Source: Magnetococcales bacterium DCbin2
Lineage (GTDB): Bacteria > Pseudomonadota > Magnetococcia > Magnetococcales > UBA8363
Direction of reading: 5' to 3'
Assembly (NCBI GenBank): GCA_002753615.1
Contig: PEAO01000009.1
Location: 8,005 to 44,540, forward strand
DNA: 36,536 nucleotides
The translations under genes and the position numbers were made by a program. Each line of letters opens with the position of its first letter. Position 1 is the stretch's first letter. This document shows positions 1,432-36,536 of this stretch, one piece after another. A model generated the notes under the pieces. That model was not told where the DNA came from and searched no databases. It worked only from the letters and a program-made list of their open reading frames with translations.

Positions 1432-1439
1432 AAGATTAA

Positions 1440-1830
1440 ATGATTAAAAGAAAAAAGGGGTCTGGGGGATTGCCCCCAGGGTTTTGACTTTGTTTTTGAC
1501 TTTGTTTTTCACGCGCCCCTTATCCCGAAGCATTTTTTTTGCGAAAAAAAAATGCGCAGGGCGCGCGCCTTGGTTTGCCTTTTTTCGCGGTTTTTGCGAA
1601 AAAAGGCAAACACAATGCAATGTTGAGGGTGTTAAAACATGGCATTATGCTTAAGATTTTTCGCAAAAGGCGCGAAAAACCTTAAGCTAAGGCGCGCGCC
1701 TGCGCATTTTTCCCTTAAAAAGAAGAAGCGCGGGAAAAATGCTTCGGGATAAGGGGCGCGTGGAAAAGCAAAGTCAAAGTCAAAACCCTGGGGGCAATCC
1801 CCCAGACCCCTTTTTTCTTTTAATAATTTC
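1440..1830. repeat. Nested long palindrome between pabB and the sdh operon
   Basis: The left arm (about 1443-1572) and right arm (about 1688-1828) are inverted copies. Both contain the ATTAAAAGAAAAAAGGGG outer end, the GGTCTGGGGG/CCCCCAG hairpin, GACTTTG repeats and a 28-base shared stretch containing CGCGCCCCTTATCCCGAAGC. Each arm holds its own small hairpin (1530-1555 and 1704-1742). The centre holds two more: TTTGCCTTTTTTCGC/GCGAAAAAAGGCAAA at 1574-1610, and CTTAAG(A/G)TTTTTCGC at 1649-1687. No gene is visible; open frames here are by-products of the palindrome. It could be a MITE-like element or two head-to-head copies of the dispersed repeat. Confidence 0.85.
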
Positions 1831-8619: not shown

Positions 8620-10920
8620 ATGATAAAAAAAGCGGTAATCACGGCACTGTTGTTGCCTCTCTGGATTTATGTTTCTGGATGTGGCGGGGCCAGCAACAGT
8701 GGCGGCGGCAGTGGATCATCGTCCACCACAGTATCGGGTGTCGTCATCGACGGTCCCGTCACGAGTTCCATTGTGACCTTCACCGATGGTAACGGTAAGT
8801 TTATCATCGCCGCCAAGACGGGGGCTGATGCCCAATATTCCATATCGATCCCTATCGGCACCTCATTTCCCCTGCATGTCAGCACCTCGGGTGGAACCGA
8901 TCGGGTGAGTGAGGAGGCTCCGGCTGCGATGGATTCTTTGGTGGCTGATGCCAGTCAAACAACCGCCAACGTGACCCCCATGACATCTTTGGTTTATCGG
9001 GCGGTGGTGGCCAATGCTGGCAATCTGGATAAGGTGACGGCCCCCATGATTGCTACCGCCAAAAAGGATGTGGTTGCCAAGTTTGGTTTTGGGATCGATG
9101 CTGAAAACAGCGGCATCGATCCGGTTACCAGCGCGGTGAATGCCAACACGATCACTTCGGTGATTCGTTCCTCCGAGGCGATGGCCGAAACGATACGGCG
9201 TGCCGTTGGTCCCAATCAGACGACTGTTGCCCAGGTATTGACTATCCTTGGTGAAGACATGGCGGATGGCTATTTGGATGGAAAAAAAGGGGGGGCGGAT
9301 CTGACCCATACCATGCCGACTGGTTTTGATGCTTCAACTATTGCAACGACGGTGGCGCAACAGAAGGTGGCGGTTGGTTTGGAAGTGGTTGCCAATCAAC
9401 TTACGGTTACCAAGTCGGATGGCTCCGAGCTTTCGTTGGCTGATTCCAAGACGCAGCTTTCGCGTGCGGTGAACCGGGTGGTTAGTACGGTGTCGGCGAG
9501 TACCGCCTTGGACAAGATGAATCAAATGCCATTATCTGAAAATCAAGTGACGCAGGTTACGACAGATATTAACGATGCCATCAAAGTTCATGGTATCCTG
9601 GGGGAAAGTACCAGTGCGTTAACCGCCCTAGGTACTGCGGCTAAAAACCTGAAAGCTGGCCAAGCTGGTATTGATCGGATCGACACCTTGGTGGCTTCAA
9701 CGGCTACAAGTACGGTTGATACCGTCACCAGTAATGTCAAGAATAGTACCTATGCGACCTCGGTTCTTTCATCGGCTGTCGCCACGGTTGGCCCTCCCGG
9801 CACGGTGACTGTATCGGGTATTGTGGTCGATGGTCCTGTGGTGGGGGCGACGGTCACCATCAGGGACAACACTGATGGAACGGTTCTTGGTACGGCGGTA
9901 ACCGGGGCGGATGCTCGGTATGTATTGATTATTCCGGCGGGATCGAGCTTTCCTTTGCATCTGAGTTCTTCGGGGGGAACCGACAAAGTATCGGGTGCTA
10001 CGGCGGCGCAGATGGATTCTTATGTGATCGATGCCAACCAGACCACCGCGAACATAACGCCGTTGACCACCGTGTTGTATCATGCGGCGGTGAATGCGGT
10101 GGGTGGTCTCCGTTACATGACGGCCACGTCTGTTTCCCAGGTTAAAACAGAGATGATGGCACAATTTGGTTTTGGCATTGATGCTCAGGAGGTGGAGTTG
10201 GATCCCGTGACCAGTCCCATCCGTTCCGGCAATGTTGTTTCGGTTGTCCGCTCTGCTGAGGCTATGGGTGAAACCATGCGGCGTGCTGTGGGTTCCAGCG
10301 CGACTGCCGTTACCCGTGCATTGGCGGTGATCGGTGCGGATATGAGCGATGGCACTTTGGATGGTTTGAAAAATGGCGTGACCATTGCGGAGACATTGGA
10401 AACCGGGTTGAGTGCTGTGGACTTGTCGATTGTGGTGACACAGCACAAGGCGATTGTCGGTGTGGAGGCGGCCAATAATAGTTTGAAGGTCACCCAATCC
10501 GATAGCACCCAGGTGACCGCTTCCAACGTCCTGACAAAACTTTCCCTGGCGAGTCACACCCTGGAGCCATCGGTTGCCCAGGCAACGGCTGCGACCTCCA
10601 TGGCGGCACTGTTGATCAGTACCAAACAAAAGGCGCAGTTGACCGCAGACCTGACCGATGCCTTGACCTATCAAACGTCTCAGGGGGCAACGACGACGGC
10701 ATTGACCGCCCTACAGACTGCAACGGACAGTATGGTATCAGGCCAGACGGGTGCCGGGGTGGTGAGTACCACGGTGATCGACACGGCGGCGAGCGCAACC
10801 AAAACCATCACCGACGGCATCAAGAACGGGACTTCCTCTGCTGTTATGGTGATATCAGATGTTTACCAACCCGTGTCGCAACGGGTCGGTAGTGACCATT
10901 GCAGTGGCGATTGTGTTTAG
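8620..10920 (+). CDS. Putative lipoprotein with an internal duplication
   Basis: Function unknown. The N-terminus MIKKAVITALLLPLWIY is a signal peptide ending in the lipobox VSGC (Cys21), followed by a Gly/Ser-rich stretch, so a lipid-anchored envelope protein is predicted. The mature part is two similar units of about 380 residues (starting near residues 38 and 405). Each opens with VSGxVxDGPV, a carboxypeptidase-regulatory-like or beta-sandwich fold, then SFPLHxSxSGGTDxVS, TTANxTPxT, FGFGIDA, DPVTS and (E)AMxETxRRAVG. The rest is Ala/Thr/Val-rich and probably helical. In-frame ATGs at 8578 and 8608 are possible starts; 8620 gives the best signal peptide. It is convergent with the RT gene, 8 bases apart. 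A 6-bp hairpin (10865-10890) inside its last codons may help termination. Confidence 0.75.
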   Translation: MIKKAVITALLLPLWIYVSGCGGASNSGGGSGSSSTTVSGVVIDGPVTSSIVTFTDGNGKFIIAAKTGADAQYSISIPIGTSFPLHVSTSGGTDRVSEEAPAAMDSLVADASQTTANVTPMTSLVYRAVVANAGNLDKVTAPMIATAKKDVVAKFGFGIDAENSGIDPVTSAVNANTITSVIRSSEAMAETIRRAVGPNQTTVAQVLTILGEDMADGYLDGKKGGADLTHTMPTGFDASTIATTVAQQKVAVGLEVVANQLTVTKSDGSELSLADSKTQLSRAVNRVVSTVSASTALDKMNQMPLSENQVTQVTTDINDAIKVHGILGESTSALTALGTAAKNLKAGQAGIDRIDTLVASTATSTVDTVTSNVKNSTYATSVLSSAVATVGPPGTVTVSGIVVDGPVVGATVTIRDNTDGTVLGTAVTGADARYVLIIPAGSSFPLHLSSSGGTDKVSGATAAQMDSYVIDANQTTANITPLTTVLYHAAVNAVGGLRYMTATSVSQVKTEMMAQFGFGIDAQEVELDPVTSPIRSGNVVSVVRSAEAMGETMRRAVGSSATAVTRALAVIGADMSDGTLDGLKNGVTIAETLETGLSAVDLSIVVTQHKAIVGVEAANNSLKVTQSDSTQVTASNVLTKLSLASHTLEPSVAQATAATSMAALLISTKQKAQLTADLTDALTYQTSQGATTTALTALQTATDSMVSGQTGAGVVSTTVIDTAASATKTITDGIKNGTSSAVMVISDVYQPVSQRVGSDHCSGDCV

Positions 10921-10928
10921 AAATATGT

Positions 10929-13900
10929 TTAATGATCGTTTTGTATAGAAAAATTTTCAGTATTCATATCATTGAATCGCGTAAAGCCCGCTGGTGGCGT
11001 TTTCCTTTTTCTAGGTGGTGGGGATAAAGTTGCATCGGGTCCAAAGTCGTTTACATCAATATCGAAAATACTGACACCAGCTTGTTTCCCACCGTGAAGA
11101 TGGGAGATTACTTTGTCGGTCCTTTCAGAAAATGGTGCTTGGACTGTAGAACCCCCAAATTCGCCACTATTTACCAAGACAATGTGTTGGAACATATGGT
11201 ATTGCAAAGCCGCTACCATGTTGTCGAACGTGGGTACATCCCGGTTGAGTGCCGGAATGATAAACATGTCAGAGATATTTGTGAGGTCAGCCGCAAGTTT
11301 AATATCGGTGGCATCATAGCAAATCGCGGAGGCTATTGCATATCCTCGGCGACGTCCCACATCGAGTTCAAAAACCAGTTGGTAGGGACGGTGACCGATT
11401 ACCCCAAGTGGCGTCTCAAGTTTTGTTGGATGTTTCTTACCCTGAAACCGGGTAATCCAAGATCGACCGGAAGAATTCTCATCAGGGATAAGCCAACAGA
11501 CTTCGTTGACATAATGACCAGAAGGAATCTGGCGTAGATTGAGTCCAGTGACAATGATAGCCTTAGTCTTGTCACTCAGACGTTTCAAAATCCAAATATC
11601 ATCTCGATGAACAGAAAGTTCAGGGAACACGATTAGATTGGCCAAAGGGTCTTCATCTTTTTCCGCGCTCGCAGTTTGCTGCACCCGGAGATGTTTAATG
11701 ACCAACGTACATATCTCGGTAATGTGCCGTTTGTGTTTTACTCGGAAGGCTGGGTTATCCAGGGTTGGGTCTGCTTTGCAGAAGTCATCTACTTGAGGGA
11801 CTAATGTCTGAACTAAGGCAATGCGTAGTGTTCGACCTTTGTCCCGGAGTGGGGGCTTGATGGGAATTGGGTAAATGGGAAGGAAGGAAGAAAACCCAAA
11901 TATTTTGGAGAGTTTTTTGAGTCGGTTTTTCAACAGGACTCTCAAATCACCCGGTGTATTAACTCGATCCCAACCCTCTACAAATCGATCTTTAATTTCT
12001 ACACCCGGCCATTGAAGCATTCGCATCAAAAGTTCGCTAACCCAGGGTGAAAAAGGGGCAGCTTCAGTGGCCATGCTCTCGGGTTTGTTCATAAGCCCCT
12101 GACGTCGGCTATACCAACTGCTACGCATGCCCCTATAGCCGTCCCAATCCTGACGGCCCAGATAGGGAGTGACGGTGAAATCCTCCTCTCCGGTAATGGC
12201 AGATCGCAACAAACGACCCAAGGCATAGAACCATATTGTTTCATCATCACACCAGATTGGCCGCTCAAGTCTTGGATCCTTGATGCCGTTGTGGTCAAGT
12301 GTGATTTTGATTTTATTTGGAAAATATTTTGGGTTCAACAACGCTGTCCAATCATCGACTTTGATTTTAACATTCCGCAGCGAAAATTGTTCATAGGATT
12401 GCTTCTTGTTGTCAGATTCTGGAATTTTTCCTATCAGGGCAATGGCTAATTTAATCCATTGGATTTCTTGTTGGAACGGGTTGTCATCCCGTGTGACTAT
12501 ATTCCACAGGGCAACATTGCAGCCATTCAACTTTTCCAGAGGACGATTGCTGTGAATCATTCCTTTTGGCACTCTGAGATAAGCCATTTCCGCCTTGATC
12601 CAGGGAGGATTTTCCTTGTCAACCAATGCCAGTATTCCCGGCATCAAGTCAGGCCGATTAAAACTGACTAACTCTAATAATTTAATTTTTTTATCTTCGG
12701 GAATATTCTTGAGGGATTGTACGAGCCACAATGAAAATTTTTGTGGATTGGGATGCATTTGTTGATGTACCAGGGCGCAAATCAGTAGTTCTCTGGGGAA
12801 CGATTCTTCGTCTAAAACTTTCTCGTAAGCGGAAATTTGTAATAAAGTTTTGTAGTGACGTAGAGAGGGATGATTTTTCCCAGTATCGATAAGTGGATGG
12901 GATTCCCACGTAGCCAATAATATCAACGCTTGTTGATCTACGTACCATGGAGTGTTTCCTTTTTTTATCAGATCCACGGCTTTGTTGCATAGTATGGCCC
13001 GGTATCCCTGTAAATCAGCGGAGTCAGGAATGCTTAGGTCAGGTGCGTTGACACCCGTTTCTACCGCTCCTGCCCGGAAAAGGTCGGCGTACAAATACAA
13101 AGCGATTCTTCTCTGAGCTTGAGAATCTCCATTTAGAAGGGACTCTAAAGATTCCAGAACCACCCGAAGCAATTTAGGACAGGGAAAAAGGTCCAATGCG
13201 TGGCGCAATACCAGAGACAAGGATGGGTCGTGGGACCAGGCGCGGATCATTTTTCGTGCCATCATCTCGATTTCATGATCGATGGCATTTTGCGACATGA
13301 ACCTGTTTTCCCCCGTAATCTCCAAGTCGGTCATGCTGCGTCGCTTGCGAAGTACATCCTTCAGGCGATAGGCGGCAAACCTTTTGATGGTATCATCGCG
13401 CACCTCTGACTTGGGAGTATCTACTTCGTCAAGAGGATGCCGTGAATCTGTCTCGGAAGGCATGCTGCAATCAAATTGGGTCGCCAAAGAGAGCATGGCT
13501 TCCAAATCAGCGGTGGTATCCTGGAGCGTTTCCATGTCGCCCGGTCCACTCAGTGCGCTCTGGATTAAGGACATCCGCGAGGTAACTCCGATCTGCCCTT
13601 CGATCAATCGGAAGGGGGTAATCTCTGTTTTACCTGTGTTGATCTCCAGTTTACGATATGTCTGGTCTTTTGAGTCATGGACGATTCCTTCGTCAAGACA
13701 CCCTGCAATCCATGTGTGGATACCTTCCTCTAAATCTTTATCACCACCATTCTTCACGCTGATCACCAAGCGCAGGTCATCTACATAACGACAATAGTCG
13801 TGGAGTATTGTTCCCTCTGGTAGGGCATAAGATTTTACAGAATCTTGACAGCTTATATGTTGTCCTACCACGTTGTCGAAATTGAGAAGGTAGGCATTGG

Positions 13901-14810
13901 CAAGAAATCCGCTGGCTACCAAGCCTTGTGGAAGTCCGTCTGGCGCACCACCTTTGATTATTTCCCAGTCGTCATGACTGAGCGTGTCCCACGTCCAGGC
14001 TGTAATTTGTTTAAATCGTTCCCAGAAATTTCCGTCAGATTCTCCGTCGGTTAATGTGTAATTTTTGATGTATGCATTGTAGGTTTCTTTGAGGCTTTGG
14101 ATTAGGGTTGGCCGATGGATCCGATCAAAGAAGGAGCTAATATCCAGTTTAACAATATAGACTTCTTCATTTTCGCCGATTTGATCCAGGACATTTCTTG
14201 CGATAATTTGAGGGCGGTTAAGGAATCGTTGATAATCTACATAATAGCGGCTGTAGGATTCACTGTTGCCCCAGCTAAAACGCGCCAGGGGGCGGTTATC
14301 TTTTCTAGTTGTTTCAGAATCAAAGGTGCAGAAGAGACGGTTGCCGTAACTATAAATTTTGCGGTGGCGGGCCTCGAAAAAATCGTTGACCGATGTATCT
14401 CCCTGGGCAGTTTCGATACAGTCTGCCAAGCAAAGCATCGCGGCGGTGGCCATGGTTTGCTCTCGGATGCCCAGATGGGCCAGGGGGCGAAGATAGAGTG
14501 GTTCCTTATCACTTTCTTCCCTTTCTGGTTCCCACTTGCCCTTTTTAAAGGTCCAACGATGGCTCTTGGGAGCGGGAACGAGCAACATGGGTTCTGGAGT
14601 AAAAAATCCAAATAATATTTCTACTCTCCACTGAGTGACGTAATCCTCCAAGTCAACTGCGGAACAATCCAGCTCCAACATATCTGCGTACCAATTGGTG
14701 CGGCGGATGTAGCGTTGAGATTTTTTCCATGCCTGGGTTAGAACCACCGGATCGGACAAGAATCTGGACTGGGCAAAAAGGCTGCGATATTTCTTGTTGA
14801 CTATAGACAT
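10929..14810 (-). CDS. Defence-associated reverse transcriptase with C-terminal nitrilase domain (DRT type 1 / UG1-like)
   Basis: A 1293-residue fusion. The N-terminal RT domain shows motif A LDISSFFDR (residues 222-230), motif B GLPQGLVASG (292-301), motif C YVDD (342-345) and motif D-like KTEITPF (394-400), so the polymerase looks active. Residues of about 430-980 are helix-rich, as expected for the alpha-helical repeat region of UG/Abi-type RTs. A C-N hydrolase (nitrilase) fold starts near 993 (RIALVQT). Its candidate Glu-Lys-Cys triad is E1064 in VFPELS, K1125 or K1126 in RFQGKKHP, and C1164 in ICYDATD. RT plus nitrilase in one chain is the UG1 architecture, shown in other bacteria to protect against phages; activity here is inferred. 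The gene is richer in A+T than its neighbours, suggesting transfer. The Shine-Dalgarno is weak. A methyltransferase gene lies 191 bases upstream on the same strand. Confidence 0.9.
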   Translation of the reverse strand: MSIVNKKYRSLFAQSRFLSDPVVLTQAWKKSQRYIRRTNWYADMLELDCSAVDLEDYVTQWRVEILFGFFTPEPMLLVPAPKSHRWTFKKGKWEPEREESDKEPLYLRPLAHLGIREQTMATAAMLCLADCIETAQGDTSVNDFFEARHRKIYSYGNRLFCTFDSETTRKDNRPLARFSWGNSESYSRYYVDYQRFLNRPQIIARNVLDQIGENEEVYIVKLDISSFFDRIHRPTLIQSLKETYNAYIKNYTLTDGESDGNFWERFKQITAWTWDTLSHDDWEIIKGGAPDGLPQGLVASGFLANAYLLNFDNVVGQHISCQDSVKSYALPEGTILHDYCRYVDDLRLVISVKNGGDKDLEEGIHTWIAGCLDEGIVHDSKDQTYRKLEINTGKTEITPFRLIEGQIGVTSRMSLIQSALSGPGDMETLQDTTADLEAMLSLATQFDCSMPSETDSRHPLDEVDTPKSEVRDDTIKRFAAYRLKDVLRKRRSMTDLEITGENRFMSQNAIDHEIEMMARKMIRAWSHDPSLSLVLRHALDLFPCPKLLRVVLESLESLLNGDSQAQRRIALYLYADLFRAGAVETGVNAPDLSIPDSADLQGYRAILCNKAVDLIKKGNTPWYVDQQALILLATWESHPLIDTGKNHPSLRHYKTLLQISAYEKVLDEESFPRELLICALVHQQMHPNPQKFSLWLVQSLKNIPEDKKIKLLELVSFNRPDLMPGILALVDKENPPWIKAEMAYLRVPKGMIHSNRPLEKLNGCNVALWNIVTRDDNPFQQEIQWIKLAIALIGKIPESDNKKQSYEQFSLRNVKIKVDDWTALLNPKYFPNKIKITLDHNGIKDPRLERPIWCDDETIWFYALGRLLRSAITGEEDFTVTPYLGRQDWDGYRGMRSSWYSRRQGLMNKPESMATEAAPFSPWVSELLMRMLQWPGVEIKDRFVEGWDRVNTPGDLRVLLKNRLKKLSKIFGFSSFLPIYPIPIKPPLRDKGRTLRIALVQTLVPQVDDFCKADPTLDNPAFRVKHKRHITEICTLVIKHLRVQQTASAEKDEDPLANLIVFPELSVHRDDIWILKRLSDKTKAIIVTGLNLRQIPSGHYVNEVCWLIPDENSSGRSWITRFQGKKHPTKLETPLGVIGHRPYQLVFELDVGRRRGYAIASAICYDATDIKLAADLTNISDMFIIPALNRDVPTFDNMVAALQYHMFQHIVLVNSGEFGGSTVQAPFSERTDKVISHLHGGKQAGVSIFDIDVNDFGPDATLSPPPRKRKTPPAGFTRFNDMNTENFSIQNDH

Positions 14811-15001
14811 AAGTCACAAATATAGATTGTCTTAATAAAATACATCATAAAATTCTGCTACCTCTTCGGGTTTTAGATGTAAAATATTTATTTTATATAT
14901 ATTTTATACAAACATCAATCCAAAATTTGCATGATTTAATTCAAAGTCTTTGTGGCAAGAAAGATCTCAGCAAGGATGTGATCATGCGTGAAATGGATTG
15001 G
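14811..15001 (-). other. A/T-rich spacer between methyltransferase and RT genes
   Basis: This 191-base stretch contains no open frame of note. It is far richer in A+T than the surroundings, with TATATATATTTTATACA-like runs on the + strand. It holds the RT promoter candidate and about 75 bases of leader before the RT ATG. I see no strong hairpin or inverted repeat typical of a retron msr/msd. Confidence 0.5.
14890..14918 (-). promoter_or_regulatory. Candidate sigma-70 promoter of the RT gene
   Basis: On the minus strand TTGATG is followed by a 17-base spacer and TAAAAT, about 80 bases before the RT start codon. The spacing is ideal and the -10 is 5/6 consensus. It suggests the RT can be transcribed independently of the methyltransferase. 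Confidence 0.5.
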
Positions 15002-16285
15002 TCATTTTTCCCACGCTCCTGAGACGGAAAACTCAATCAGTTCCTTTTTTGAATTGCGCTTGCGAATGGAGGTTATTGCAATGTTGGTAAAGCCCAATTC
15101 GGCCAGCATGTCGGCATAAAGACGTTCGGTTGGCAACAGGGTGCCGTAGAATTTTGAATTGCCAACGATGTAATGCACTCTGCCGCCTGGAGCCATGATG
15201 GTGGATAGGCTGGTGAAGTGATGCCACATATCTTCGGCGTATTTGGCGATATAGTTGGCCAGCAATTTGCCGTTGGCGTTGTCGGTATGGGCGATGGCGT
15301 TCAGCGTCGGACCTAGCCATTTGGGTACAAAGGCTCTGCCGTCTGGCTGCCAATCGGTCAAGCGGCTGGTGGCAATGCCCCAAGTGCCACCGATGGTCTG
15401 CCAGTCGAGTTCGCCGGCGTCGCGGGCGTTGGTGAGATAGTCAAGCCAATACATGTAAGGTCGCAATTCGCGGATATAGGACATGCGGTTCGCATAGGGC
15501 GGCGAAGTGATCACCAAATCGAATTGATCATTCATCTGACCAAGGGCGCGGGCGTCTCCGTGGATGATGCGGACTTGACCTTCGGGTGCTTGCATGGCTC
15601 CGATCAGGATATGTGACACGTCACCTTGAAACTGGCCTGACAAATCGGCGGGTAAATCCAGTTCAGCTTGGTCGGCGTTACGCAATGACATGGATTGATG
15701 ATCAAAGGCGGCGTTCGATAAAGTCATGAGGGTGCGGCAAAACGCAACCAGGAGCAAAGAGCGTTCGGGCGAATCGGACGCTGTGGCTTGTTCAATGGCA
15801 GGGCGCAAGCGGCACAGGAAAATGCGAGCCGGATCGCTCCACCAACGGGTAATATTATAAATGGGAGGTTCGGCCATAGGCTTGAAACCCCGTTTTTTTA
15901 CCAAAGCCAGGGCCTCGGCGCACGCCTGACGTGTGGTTTGGATCGTTACGGCGGAATAGGTCGCGGTTTTGGTCGCGGCCAGCCAAACCAGAAATGGGTT
16001 GATTTCAACAGTGGTGGCGGCATGGCCTTTGGTGGCGGTACAAAGGGCCGTTGTGGCGGTTCCGCAAAACGGATCAAGCACATGAGCCGGATTGCCTGGA
16101 AATGCGGCCAGAATTTCATCAACGACCTTGACCGAATAGGCAGGCGTCAGACGTAACCAGCTATGACGGCTCGATTTGTGTCCGTCCTTGCCGTTAAATT
16201 TGTGGGTATAGTCGGCCCGTTGGCGCAAGGTGGCGGGGGAGGATGTGGCGATATTGGAGGCGATTGCGGTAAGGAGCGGGGTCAT
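15002..16285 (-). CDS. Site-specific DNA methyltransferase (amino-methylating, TSPPY type)
   Basis: Predicted S-adenosylmethionine-dependent DNA N4-cytosine or N6-adenine methyltransferase. In the 427-residue protein, motif X-like RHSWLRLTPAYS (residues 40-51) is followed by motif I LDPFCGTATT (70-79). About 180 residues later comes catalytic motif IV TSPPYANRMSY (260-270), so the order is AdoMet-binding before catalysis. The ATG at 16285 (MTPLL) is preferred over a TTG at 16327, which lies in a palindrome. Neither has a strong ribosome site. No restriction endonuclease gene adjoins it; the neighbours are the RT-nitrilase downstream and rnf upstream. It could be an orphan regulatory methylase, the self-marking half of the defence cassette, or a remnant of a restriction system. 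The recognition sequence cannot be predicted from here. Confidence 0.85.
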   Translation of the reverse strand: MTPLLTAIASNIATSSPATLRQRADYTHKFNGKDGHKSSRHSWLRLTPAYSVKVVDEILAAFPGNPAHVLDPFCGTATTALCTATKGHAATTVEINPFLVWLAATKTATYSAVTIQTTRQACAEALALVKKRGFKPMAEPPIYNITRWWSDPARIFLCRLRPAIEQATASDSPERSLLLVAFCRTLMTLSNAAFDHQSMSLRNADQAELDLPADLSGQFQGDVSHILIGAMQAPEGQVRIIHGDARALGQMNDQFDLVITSPPYANRMSYIRELRPYMYWLDYLTNARDAGELDWQTIGGTWGIATSRLTDWQPDGRAFVPKWLGPTLNAIAHTDNANGKLLANYIAKYAEDMWHHFTSLSTIMAPGGRVHYIVGNSKFYGTLLPTERLYADMLAELGFTNIAITSIRKRNSKKELIEFSVSGAWEK

Positions 16286-16326
16286 GCGGCATCCGGCGTG
16301 AGCAAGGCACGTAACACGCTGTCTCA

Positions 16327-16340: not shown

Positions 16341-16393
16341 GGCCCAGCGAATCGACGTAACTGCTCAGATCCCCCACTCACATAAAAATCTTT

Positions 16394-16446
16394 GAAAAGT
16401 GAAGAAGGGGAGTGGGGAACTCTTTCCCCAGGGTTTTCACTTTAAG
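16394..16446 (+). repeat. Dispersed hairpin repeat, copy c
   Basis: TTGAAAAGTGAAGAAGGGG, then the stem TGGGGAA/TTCCCCA (16413-16430), then GGGTTTTCACTTT. It is very close to the copy at 34979-35031 and related to the copies at 1443 and 1768. It lies just beyond the 3' end of the rnf operon and could act in its termination. Confidence 0.7.
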
Positions 16447-16587
16447 TTAAAAACATCATCAATCCTATGGGTAATTCATCAGACATCTTTTATTTTTCAA
16501 TGATTTTATGGCATCGACCAGCAATCCGTGGCACAAGACAAGGATCAGCCGCCCTTTTTTCAAGGGGGGTTGAACGGCCAGTGCGGA

Positions 16588-24049: not shown

Positions 24050-24805
24050 ATGCCGAGTACGATGACAGTTGATGATATCTGGAGACTCTTTGAAGAAACA
24101 AGCCGCCAGTTCCGGGAGCAAAGCGCGGAGACGGATCGTAAATTCCGGGAGCAAAGCGTGGAGACGGATCGTAAATTCCGGGAGCGAAGCGCGGAGACGG
24201 ATCGGATACTCAAGGAGCGAAGCGCGGAGACGGATCGGATACTCAAGGAGCGAAGCGCGGAAATGGATCGGGTACTCAAGGAAACATCTCTCAAAGTCCA
24301 GGAGACTACTGCACAGGTGCAGGAGACCACTGCACAGATGCGGGAGACGGATCGCGTCGTCAAGGAGGTCTCCAGAAAAGTTGGCAGCCTGGGTAGTCGT
24401 TGGGGAGATTTCGTGGAAGGGTTGGTCGCTCCAGCCTGCGAGACTCTTTTTGCCGAAAGAGGTATCCCGGTTCATAAGGTCAGCCGTCAGATGAAAGCGA
24501 AACTGCCCGGCGGTCGCCACATGGAAATCGATGTTTTTGTGGTGAATACCGATGCCGTCGTGCTGGTGGAAGTCAAGAGTGCCCTGACCGTTGAGGACGT
24601 AAGGGACCACCTTATCCGCTTGGCAGAGTTCAAGGATTTTTTCCCGGAATATGCCAATAAGCGTGTCTTTGGTGCCGTGGCAGGAATTGTCATTGGAGAA
24701 CATGCCGACCGCTTCGCCATGAACAAAGGGCTATTTGTTATCGTGCAGTCGGGTGATACTGTGCGTATGGCCAATGAACCGGAGTTCCAACCGCATCCTT
24801 GGTAA
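24050..24805 (+). CDS. Coiled-coil protein with PD-(D/E)XK-like nuclease domain (DUF3782-like)
   Basis: 251 residues. Residues of about 10-110 are a charged coiled coil dominated by five copies of an 11-residue repeat (FREQSAETDRK type), then QETTAQ repeats. Residues of about 115-245 look like a restriction-endonuclease-like fold: EIDVFVVNTDAVVLVEVKS supplies Asp161 and the pair E174-x-K176 of a PD-(D/E)XK site. This is inferred from pattern, not activity. A start at 24062 (MTVDD) is also possible. It stands alone between GGGGACA repeat patches, which suggests acquisition by transfer. The substrate is unknown; related small proteins occur in cyanobacteria and other bacteria. Confidence 0.7.
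   Translation: MPSTMTVDDIWRLFEETSRQFREQSAETDRKFREQSVETDRKFRERSAETDRILKERSAETDRILKERSAEMDRVLKETSLKVQETTAQVQETTAQMRETDRVVKEVSRKVGSLGSRWGDFVEGLVAPACETLFAERGIPVHKVSRQMKAKLPGGRHMEIDVFVVNTDAVVLVEVKSALTVEDVRDHLIRLAEFKDFFPEYANKRVFGAVAGIVIGEHADRFAMNKGLFVIVQSGDTVRMANEPEFQPHPW
24110..24274 (+). repeat. 33-bp tandem repeat (5 copies) in the coiled-coil gene
   Basis: Five consecutive 33-bp units with few differences encode 11-residue units (F/L)(R/K)E(Q/R)S(A/V)E(T/M)DR(K/I/V). The high DNA identity indicates recent expansion. An 11-residue period suits a hendecad coiled coil. Confidence 0.9.
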
Positions 24806-31775: not shown

Positions 31776-31940
31776 AATCCCCCTGCGGTGTTCGATAGGA
31801 CAGACTTCCTTCTGAGCCGATAACTTACGAGCCCAGGGGACCTGCGCTGTCCGTGGAGCGTCCGCCCTTTTGGCAGACCGGAAGCGGTTATCAGGACCCC
31901 ACCTTACACTGAGGGTTCAGAGGAGCACGTTTAACGGCAC
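31776..31940 (+). ncRNA. ssrS: 6S RNA
   Basis: The stretch between zapA and the 5-FTHF cyclo-ligase gene, the conserved place of 6S RNA, carries its signatures: CTGCGGTGTTCG near the 5' end, CTGAGCCGATAAC, and GGTTATCAGGACCCC on the 3' side. GATAAC and GTTATC can pair across the apical hairpin arm, whose tip includes GTC.GCC/GGC.GAC. 6S RNA mimics an open promoter and sequesters sigma-70 RNA polymerase in stationary phase. The ends are approximate: AATCCCCC near 31778 can pair with GGGGGATT beginning near 31946, so the closing stem may reach into the next gene. Confidence 0.8.
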
Positions 31941-32546
31941 ATGTGGGGGGATTTTGATCAGGTGCAACCGAGCAAGGAAGCGTTGCGAAGAATGTTGCGT
32001 ACACGCCGTCGTGCTATGCCTCTGGCGGAGGTTGCGCGGTTGAGTGGTATGGTTTGTCGGCTGGCTGTGGGGCTTGCGGTGTATGTTCGAGCCAGTGTCG
32101 TCGGTGTTTACCATGCGGCTGACCATGAAGTCGATCCAGAATCTTTGATGCGACATGCGGTTTCGCTGGGTAAAAAAGTGGCTCTGCCGGTGACGGGTGC
32201 CGGGGAGAAGGGGATGGTTTTTGTGGAATGGGGACCGGAACGGGGGATGGCAGTGGGGCCTTTTGGGATCATGCAACCCTGTTGGACGGGTGAGATTGCG
32301 GATACGGTGGCACGGGATGACTTGGATGTGATTTTTGTCCCTTTGGTTGGGTTTGACCGGCGGGGGGGACGGATTGGATATGGTGGTGGTTATTTTGACC
32401 GTTATTTAGCGGGGGCACCCGGGGGAAAGCCGTGTTTGGTGGGGCTGGCGTATGGATGCCAAGAGGTGGCGGAGATCCCTGCCGAGCCGCACGATTGTAG
32501 ACTTCATTATGTGATTACGGAGGGGGGGGGGACATGTTTTGCATGA
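31941..32546 (+). CDS. fau: 5-formyltetrahydrofolate cyclo-ligase family protein
   Basis: ATP-dependent conversion of 5-formyl-THF to 5,10-methenyl-THF, a folate salvage step. The 201-residue protein has a basic N-terminal helix (KEALRRMLRTRRRAM) and the family signature VPLVGFDRRGGRIGYGGGYFDRYL. The ATG lies at the 3' end of the 6S RNA. Later starts (31992) would cut conserved basic residues. The stop codon lies inside its own terminator. Confidence 0.92.
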   Translation: MWGDFDQVQPSKEALRRMLRTRRRAMPLAEVARLSGMVCRLAVGLAVYVRASVVGVYHAADHEVDPESLMRHAVSLGKKVALPVTGAGEKGMVFVEWGPERGMAVGPFGIMQPCWTGEIADTVARDDLDVIFVPLVGFDRRGGRIGYGGGYFDRYLAGAPGGKPCLVGLAYGCQEVAEIPAEPHDCRLHYVITEGGGTCFA

Positions 32547-34934: not shown

Positions 34935-34978
34935 TTATTTTATGCTTGCGTAACCGTTCAGTTTACTTCTAAAAAACT

Positions 34979-35031
34979 TTTGAAAAGAAAGAAGGGGTCT
35001 GGGGAATTCTTTCCCCAGGGTTTTGATTCTA
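34979..35031 (+). repeat. Dispersed hairpin repeat, copy d
   Basis: TTTTGAAAAGAAAGAAGGGG, then TCTGGGGAA/TTCCCCAG hairpin, then GGTTTTGATTC. It is nearly the same as the copy at 16394. It follows the HU-like gene and may end its transcription. Confidence 0.75.
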
Positions 35032-35087
35032 AATAAGAAGTTCCATTCTCCGTTTTTGAATCTGCTCTTGAATTTAAACAAAGATTA

Positions 35088-36401: not shown

Positions 36402-36512
36402 GGTGGCGCAAGCGTATCAGATTTGCCAAACTTTCTAAAGAATAAATGACTGTGGAATCAGGGCAATCGCATTTGAAATTGGCACGTCCAAATGCCTCGG
36501 AAAGAATAAATT

Positions 36513-36536
36513 ATTAAAAGAAAAAAGGGGTCTGGG
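36513..36536 (+). repeat. Dispersed hairpin repeat, copy f (cut by window edge)
   Basis: ATTAAAAGAAAAAAGGGG then TCTGGG, identical to the outer ends of the palindrome at 1443 and 1828. The hairpin half lies outside the window. Confidence 0.8.

What the first reader, a model, noticed from the sequence alone, without database searches (positions are those of the whole stretch)
10929..16285. RT-nitrilase defence gene paired with a DNA methyltransferase
Seen: one 1293-residue chain has intact RT motifs (YVDD) and a complete candidate Glu-Lys-Cys nitrilase triad, with a TSPPY-type DNA methyltransferase just upstream on the same strand and no restriction enzyme. Known: RT-nitrilase fusions are UG1/DRT type 1 anti-phage systems that normally work as single genes. 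Inferred: the methyltransferase may be a functional partner, for example marking host DNA, or just a neighbour in a defence hotspot between leuS/lipoprotein and rnf.
Basis: partly seen in the sequence, partly recalled or inferred. Interest (0 to 1): 0.7.

Follow-up and report, generated by a model that had tools for sequence, protein, structure and literature searches.

The report
Ordinary DRT1 beside decayed restriction-modification gene
The window holds a complete copy of a known single-gene anti-phage enzyme (DRT1) next to a DNA methyltransferase that is most likely the surviving half of a broken restriction-modification system, so the two look like neighbours rather than a new two-part system.

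Summary
The 1293-aa protein (10929-14810, -) is a full-length DRT1a/UG1 reverse transcriptase-nitrilase (PADLOC Drt1a, 1351 bits), homologous to solved E. coli DRT1 (9YFD), with active-site and lid residues present. The 427-aa methyltransferase (15002-16285, -) is real, but the partnership is not supported. In the two other searched genomes with 70-74% homologues it overlaps the end of a type II restriction-endonuclease gene (E 3e-85, 4e-87). In the window a broken remnant of that endonuclease's C-terminus meets the methyltransferase start in the same register: 8 of 13 residues, the highest among 72,641 ATG positions scanned. None of 90 other DRT1 loci examined carries this methyltransferase or endonuclease in the flank held. 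The other genome with both DRT1 and methyltransferase (G008) has them on different contigs. GC differs: DRT1 0.46, methyltransferase 0.55. The leuS/lipoprotein-to-rnf junction was seen only in this assembly; rearrangement and misassembly are not separated. Verdict: standalone DRT1 beside an orphan methyltransferase of a decayed restriction-modification operon. Known kinds; low interest.

The parts
10929..14810 (-). DRT1a (UG1) reverse transcriptase - helical repeat - nitrilase protein, 1293 aa
   Evidence: PADLOC Drt1a PDLC03745, 1351 bits, residues 4-1276; PDB 9YFD E 2.7e-192 in two stretches, 1-653 and 759-1278; one match in own genome
13776..13787 (-). RT motif YVDD (residues 342-345)
   Evidence: in 81 of 81 aligned homologues; the Asp pair D324/D325 of E. 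coli DRT1 is needed for defence (PMC13275509)
13548..13550 (-). Ser421, probable priming serine (LSGP)
   Evidence: Ser in 76 of 81 homologues; the other 5 have a gap-shifted TSS/ASS/ASC form; S402 is the primer in E. coli DRT1. Equivalence is inferred
11319..11621 (-). nitrilase active-site span: Glu1064, Lys1125, Glu1132, Cys1164
   Evidence: E1064, K1125 and C1164 in 81 of 81 homologues, E1132 in 80 of 81; C1116 of E. coli DRT1 is needed for defence
10989..11003 (-). C-terminal lid, Lys1270 to Ala1274
   Evidence: K and A in 81 of 81 homologues; by the offset at the end of the 9YFD alignment they equal K1219 and A1223, needed for defence; that equivalence is inferred
10852..10973 (.). left junction: homology to G004 ends at 10851 in the lipoprotein gene; DRT1 homology ends at about 10974
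   Evidence: 19 residues follow the lid Ala against a median of 6
14811..15001 (.). AT-rich spacer (GC 0.283) between methyltransferase and DRT1
   Evidence: two weak promoter-like matches on the - strand, the regional total not above shuffles (11 against mean 8.3, sd 3.2)
15002..16285 (-). DNA methyltransferase (DPFCGTATT ... TSPPY), intact, 427 aa; orphan M of a type II R-M system
   Evidence: PADLOC MTase_II PDLC03306 E 2.3e-27; 74% to G006 and 70% to G008
16282..16323 (-). frame-broken remnant of the endonuclease C-terminus: 13 codons and a stop that overlaps the methyltransferase ATG
   Evidence: 8 of 13 residues as in the G008 endonuclease tail, same register; highest of 72,641 ATG positions; another stop directly upstream
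16383..16452 (.). dispersed repeat at the right junction, beyond rnfE
   Evidence: 79% to 34970-35039; related repeats follow rnfE in G002 and G006 and the lipoprotein gene in G004

Best explanation
Two unrelated defence genes sit side by side. (1) A standalone DRT1a. By analogy with the E. coli enzyme it would make template-free DNA primed on one of its own serines, assemble into dormant filaments, and upon infection release a nitrilase activity that aborts the infection (mechanism inferred from homology; presence of the active-site and lid residues is shown). (2) An orphan type II methyltransferase left after its upstream restriction endonuclease was destroyed, only a broken C-terminal tail remaining against the methyltransferase start. 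The methyltransferase may still methylate DNA, but nothing found indicates that DRT1 needs it.
For: DRT1: Drt1a 1351 bits, 9YFD E 2.7e-192, residues kept. R-M origin: in G006 and G008 the methyltransferase ATG overlaps the stop of a REase_II gene; the window keeps the tail in that register, the highest of 72,641 positions, and the second highest (7 of 13) is the start of the viral-contig homologue L147. No association: 0 of 90 other DRT1 loci have this methyltransferase or endonuclease, with the RT found in 85 of 85 as control and a drt1b-like gene seen in 9 of 81. G008 has both genes on separate contigs. GC 0.461 against 0.546.
Against: The remnant is short. By plain tblastn over the whole window it is not distinguished from chance (E 2.4, with several unrelated stretches scoring the same or better; E 0.004 within the 331-nt gap alone), and by free local DNA alignment 4 of 2000 shuffles reach the G006 score and 63 of 2000 the G008 score; the case rests on its register. 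The methyltransferase is intact and conserved (dN/dS about 0.07-0.10 with dS saturated), so it may have a role. The two genes share a strand, 191 bp apart. The assembly is 78% complete and its junctions are unverified, so an intact endonuclease elsewhere is not excluded.
Confidence: 0.9

Rival explanations
1. Functional pair: the methyltransferase marks host DNA and DRT1 responds to unmarked DNA or depends on the mark.
For: Same strand, 191 bp apart, methyltransferase intact.
Against: 0 of 90 other DRT1 loci; E. coli DRT1 protects alone (PMC13275509); the neighbour in relatives is an endonuclease; GC mismatch.
Confidence: 0.04
2. Assembly chimera: the contig joins lipoprotein, DRT1-methyltransferase and rnf pieces that are not neighbours in the real genome. 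(Not exclusive with the best explanation.)
For: leuS and rnf on different contigs in 6 of 6 congeners with both found; G000 contig C20 ends in a repeat where the lipoprotein gene follows in G004; a repeat at the right junction.
Against: No repeat found at the left junction 10852-10973; between repeat and methyltransferase lies a decayed tail, which a join alone would not make.
Confidence: 0.25
3. The methyltransferase arrived alone, for example from a phage, and was never part of an R-M operon in this lineage.
For: Homologues without a detectable endonuclease on IMG/VR viral contigs L147 and L148.
Against: The window copy is nearer to the R-M copies (70-74%) than to the viral ones (58% and 45%) and keeps an endonuclease tail; but L147 seems to keep one too, so the tail alone does not exclude this.
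Confidence: 0.08

Closest known systems
DRT1 / UG1 (class 3 DRT), E. coli DRT1, PDB 9YFD, PMC13275509
   Same: RT and nitrilase regions in one chain, YVDD, nitrilase Glu/Lys/Cys, probable priming serine, conserved C-terminal lid; no drt1b beside it
   Different: 19 residues after the lid Ala against a median of 6; 1293 against 1229 aa
Type II R-M pair with PADLOC REase_II PDLC03512, as in relatives G006 and G008
   Same: Methyltransferase 70-74% identical; endonuclease tail in the same overlap register
   Different: Endonuclease reduced to a broken C-terminal fragment
Orphan methyltransferases beside degraded endonuclease genes (passage of PMC6471742 seen)
   Same: Intact methyltransferase next to a degraded endonuclease
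   Different: None evident

Membership tests
DRT1a / UG1 | Full-length match to the family profile | tested here: met
   PDLC03745, 1351 bits, residues 4-1276, profile 4-1176 of 1176
DRT1a / UG1 | RT active site YxDD | tested here: met
   Y342 V343 D344 D345
DRT1a / UG1 | Nitrilase catalytic Glu, Lys, Cys | tested here: met
   E1064, K1125, C1164, each in 81 of 81 homologues
DRT1a / UG1 | Priming serine equivalent to S402 | tested here: inconclusive
   S421 in a column with Ser in 76 of 81; E. coli-type sequences are gap-shifted there
DRT1a / UG1 | Anti-phage activity | not testable with these tools
   needs a plaque assay
Type II restriction-modification system | Methyltransferase of an R-M family | tested here: met
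   PDLC03306; two homologues beside a REase_II gene
Type II restriction-modification system | Intact cognate endonuclease | tested here: not met
   Only a broken tail in the window; no match in the 78% complete assembly
DRT1 plus methyltransferase two-gene system | Recurrent adjacency across genomes | tested here: not met
   0 of 90 other DRT1 loci examined

The most novel reading that the evidence does not exclude
In this lineage an orphaned R-M methyltransferase has been recruited beside DRT1, so that host methylation restrains or licenses the DRT1 response: a local, newly formed two-gene arrangement.
Probability: 0.03. Interest if true: 0.65.

Novelty: new member of a known kind. Interest (0 to 1): 0.15.

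Why it matters
It removes a tempting two-gene defence hypothesis and shows a compact way to expose such cases: look for the lost partner's tail in the ancestral start-stop overlap. It also adds an intact DRT1a from a lineage whose order-mates are titled Magnetococcales.

Tried and rejected
Functional DRT1-methyltransferase pair: rejected on 0 of 90 other loci. The 90 are 80 genome-contig loci and 5 plasmid loci plus L040, L043 and three viral-contig loci L155-L157. Limits: the 80 are the best of 233 confirmed matches; of the 85, 73 had 2 kb or more upstream and 62 had 9 kb or more. A strict motif scan for any methyltransferase gave 0 of 85; a looser one gave three frames: a methyltransferase-like one in L105, one in the RT frame of L078 and one in L138 that I did not examine. 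These scans miss some enzymes: L063 has an annotated type I endonuclease-methyltransferase fusion at its edge, about 6.8 kb from DRT1, which they did not list; 5-methylcytosine enzymes were not sought.

Methyltransferase as core gene: rejected; strong matches in 3 of 61 genomes, with weak ones in two more (22-28% identity), and at E 1e-30 in 3 of 398 of the phylum, the same three.

Hotspot between leuS and rnf: not supported. rnfE was found in 7 of 7 congeners (partial in G003) and leuS in 6 of 7 (not in G003); in those six they are on different contigs. The lipoprotein gene beside leuS was seen in G004 only. Sequence held beyond rnfE was short in G002 (155 nt) and G004 (1895 nt).

Methyltransferase structure: mean pLDDT 51 from three sequences, too poor, so no fold search was run; base specificity not determined. 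The first genome-contig scan with the RT alone confirmed no relative. The endonuclease had no Pfam match up to E 1, no PDB match up to E 1, no plasmid match and no confirmed viral-contig match. DRT1 had no phage-record match at E 1e-20.

Full report
Observation. The two genes are present at the stated place. The larger protein, 1293 aa, matches PADLOC Drt1a over residues 4-1276 with 1351 bits and the solved E. coli DRT1 9YFD with E 2.7e-192, in two stretches that cover residues 1-653 and 759-1278. Its own genome gives one match to it. The smaller is a 427-aa DNA methyltransferase (PADLOC MTase_II PDLC03306, E 2.3e-27).

DRT1 anatomy. Of PMC13275509 I saw the outline and abstract, passages and sections 5, 7, 8 and 10. 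In E. coli DRT1, changing the RT Asp pair D324/D325, the priming serine S402 or the nitrilase C1116 abolishes defence, and lid residues K1219 and A1223 are needed; about 18% of drt1 genes have a membrane partner drt1b, and DRT1 works without it. In an alignment of the window protein with 81 of 85 collected homologues (4 dropped as cut off or short), YVDD, E1064, K1125, C1164, K1270 and A1274 stand in the window and in 81 of 81; E1132 in 80 of 81; S421 in 76 of 81, the other five having a gap-shifted TSS/ASS/ASC form. Mapping of the lid and primer residues to the E. coli numbering is inferred. The window protein carries 19 residues after the lid Ala against a median of 6, so its end lies at the left junction. 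No drt1b-like gene can follow directly, because the convergent lipoprotein gene ends 8 bases away. A drt1b-like gene was seen in 9 of 81 homologous loci with enough downstream sequence, so the survey can see a real partner.

Origin of the methyltransferase. Of 61 genomes, strong matches occur in G000 (own), G006 (same genus, 74%) and G008 (same order, 70%); G037 and G051 give weak ones. In G006 and G008 the gene directly before it encodes 300 and 303 aa and matches PADLOC REase_II PDLC03512 at E 3e-85 and 4e-87; its stop codon overlaps the methyltransferase ATG in both. That endonuclease is found in 2 of 61 relatives (E 1e-3) and 2 of 398 genomes of the phylum (E 1e-20), G006 and G008 each time, not G000; the two sets overlap. 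Directly before the window methyltransferase, in another frame and with the same stop-ATG overlap, 13 codons give 8 identities to the G008 endonuclease tail, with a stop immediately upstream. Over 72,641 ATG positions in the window and the loci then held (R-M loci and own-genome copies of this stretch excluded; overlapping loci not merged), this is the only one with 8 identities. The single one with 7 is the start of the methyltransferase homologue on viral contig L147, and one has 6. Weaker tests: 4 of 2000 shuffles equal the G006 local DNA score and 63 of 2000 the G008 score, and tblastn over the whole window gives the tail only E 2.4, no better than unrelated stretches. The inference therefore rests on register and position. 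A passage of PMC6471742 says that a number of bacterial orphan methyltransferases neighbour degraded endonuclease genes; this locus fits that.

Association test. The methyltransferases (window, G006, G008) and endonucleases (G006, G008) were searched against 85 DRT1 loci: 80 from genome contigs (best of 233 confirmed) and 5 from plasmids. No match at E 1e-3 for either, while the RT query found 85 of 85. Five further loci (L040, L043, L155-L157) gave none, while the same run found the methyltransferase in 4 of 4 and the endonuclease in the expected 2 control loci. So 0 of 90 in the flanks held. Within the order, DRT1 proper is in 5 of 48 genomes (G000, G008, G023, and at contig ends G038 and G045); the other 16 genomes in that tally match only over short stretches of the RT region. 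Of the five, only G000 and G008 have the methyltransferase, and in G008 the two lie on different contigs, DRT1 near an IetS gene. G006 has the methyltransferase and its endonuclease but no DRT1.

Locus. GC is 0.461 for DRT1, 0.283 for the spacer, 0.546 for the methyltransferase, 0.543 for the lipoprotein and 0.546 for rnf. Against the closest relative G004, homology on the left stops at 10851 and resumes at 16585, on two different G004 contigs. In six of six congeners with both found, leuS and rnf lie on different contigs. A gene that follows the lipoprotein in G004 lies in G000 on contig C20, which ends in a repeat where the lipoprotein would follow. A related repeat lies at 16383-16452. Rearrangement at dispersed repeats and misassembly both remain possible.

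Conclusion. DRT1 is ordinary and complete as far as sequence shows. The methyltransferase is best read as the survivor of a type II R-M operon. A functional link has no support beyond adjacency in one draft assembly. Three searches of the paper library listed nothing on a DRT1/UG1-methyltransferase pairing (listings only), and the DRT1 paper does not contain the word methyltransferase. The order is inferred from records L065 and L066, titled Magnetococcales bacterium, which match the contig lengths of G023 and G045; the window's own name was not given.

Noticed in passing
window 31777-31953 (+): 6S RNA (RF00013), 86.9 bits.
   Followed up: no
window 1438-1829: MITE-like inverted element with 66-nt arms, 92% complementary; related stretches at 16383-16452, 34970-35039 and 36502-36536, and in congeners after rnfE or the lipoprotein gene.
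   Followed up: partly
window 24077-24367: 33-nt tandem repeats within ORF 24050-24805.
   Followed up: no
L147 3333-3359: The viral-contig methyltransferase homologue seems to keep an endonuclease-tail fragment (ALLTPETT, then a stop overlapping the ATG), suggesting capture from an R-M operon.
   Followed up: partly
L045 12336-14225 and L154 84-1974: An RT-bearing element beside rnfE in G004 (group II intron type by look; no family search made) has a 96.5% identical copy on another contig of the window's genome.
   Followed up: partly
L040 14059-17635: G008 DRT1 lies near an IetS-family subtilase and an AAA ATPase, an IetAS-like pair.
   Followed up: no
L046 4034-6791: leuS of the closest relative G004 is reported with two TAA inside the match and split near its 5' end; cause not examined.
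   Followed up: no
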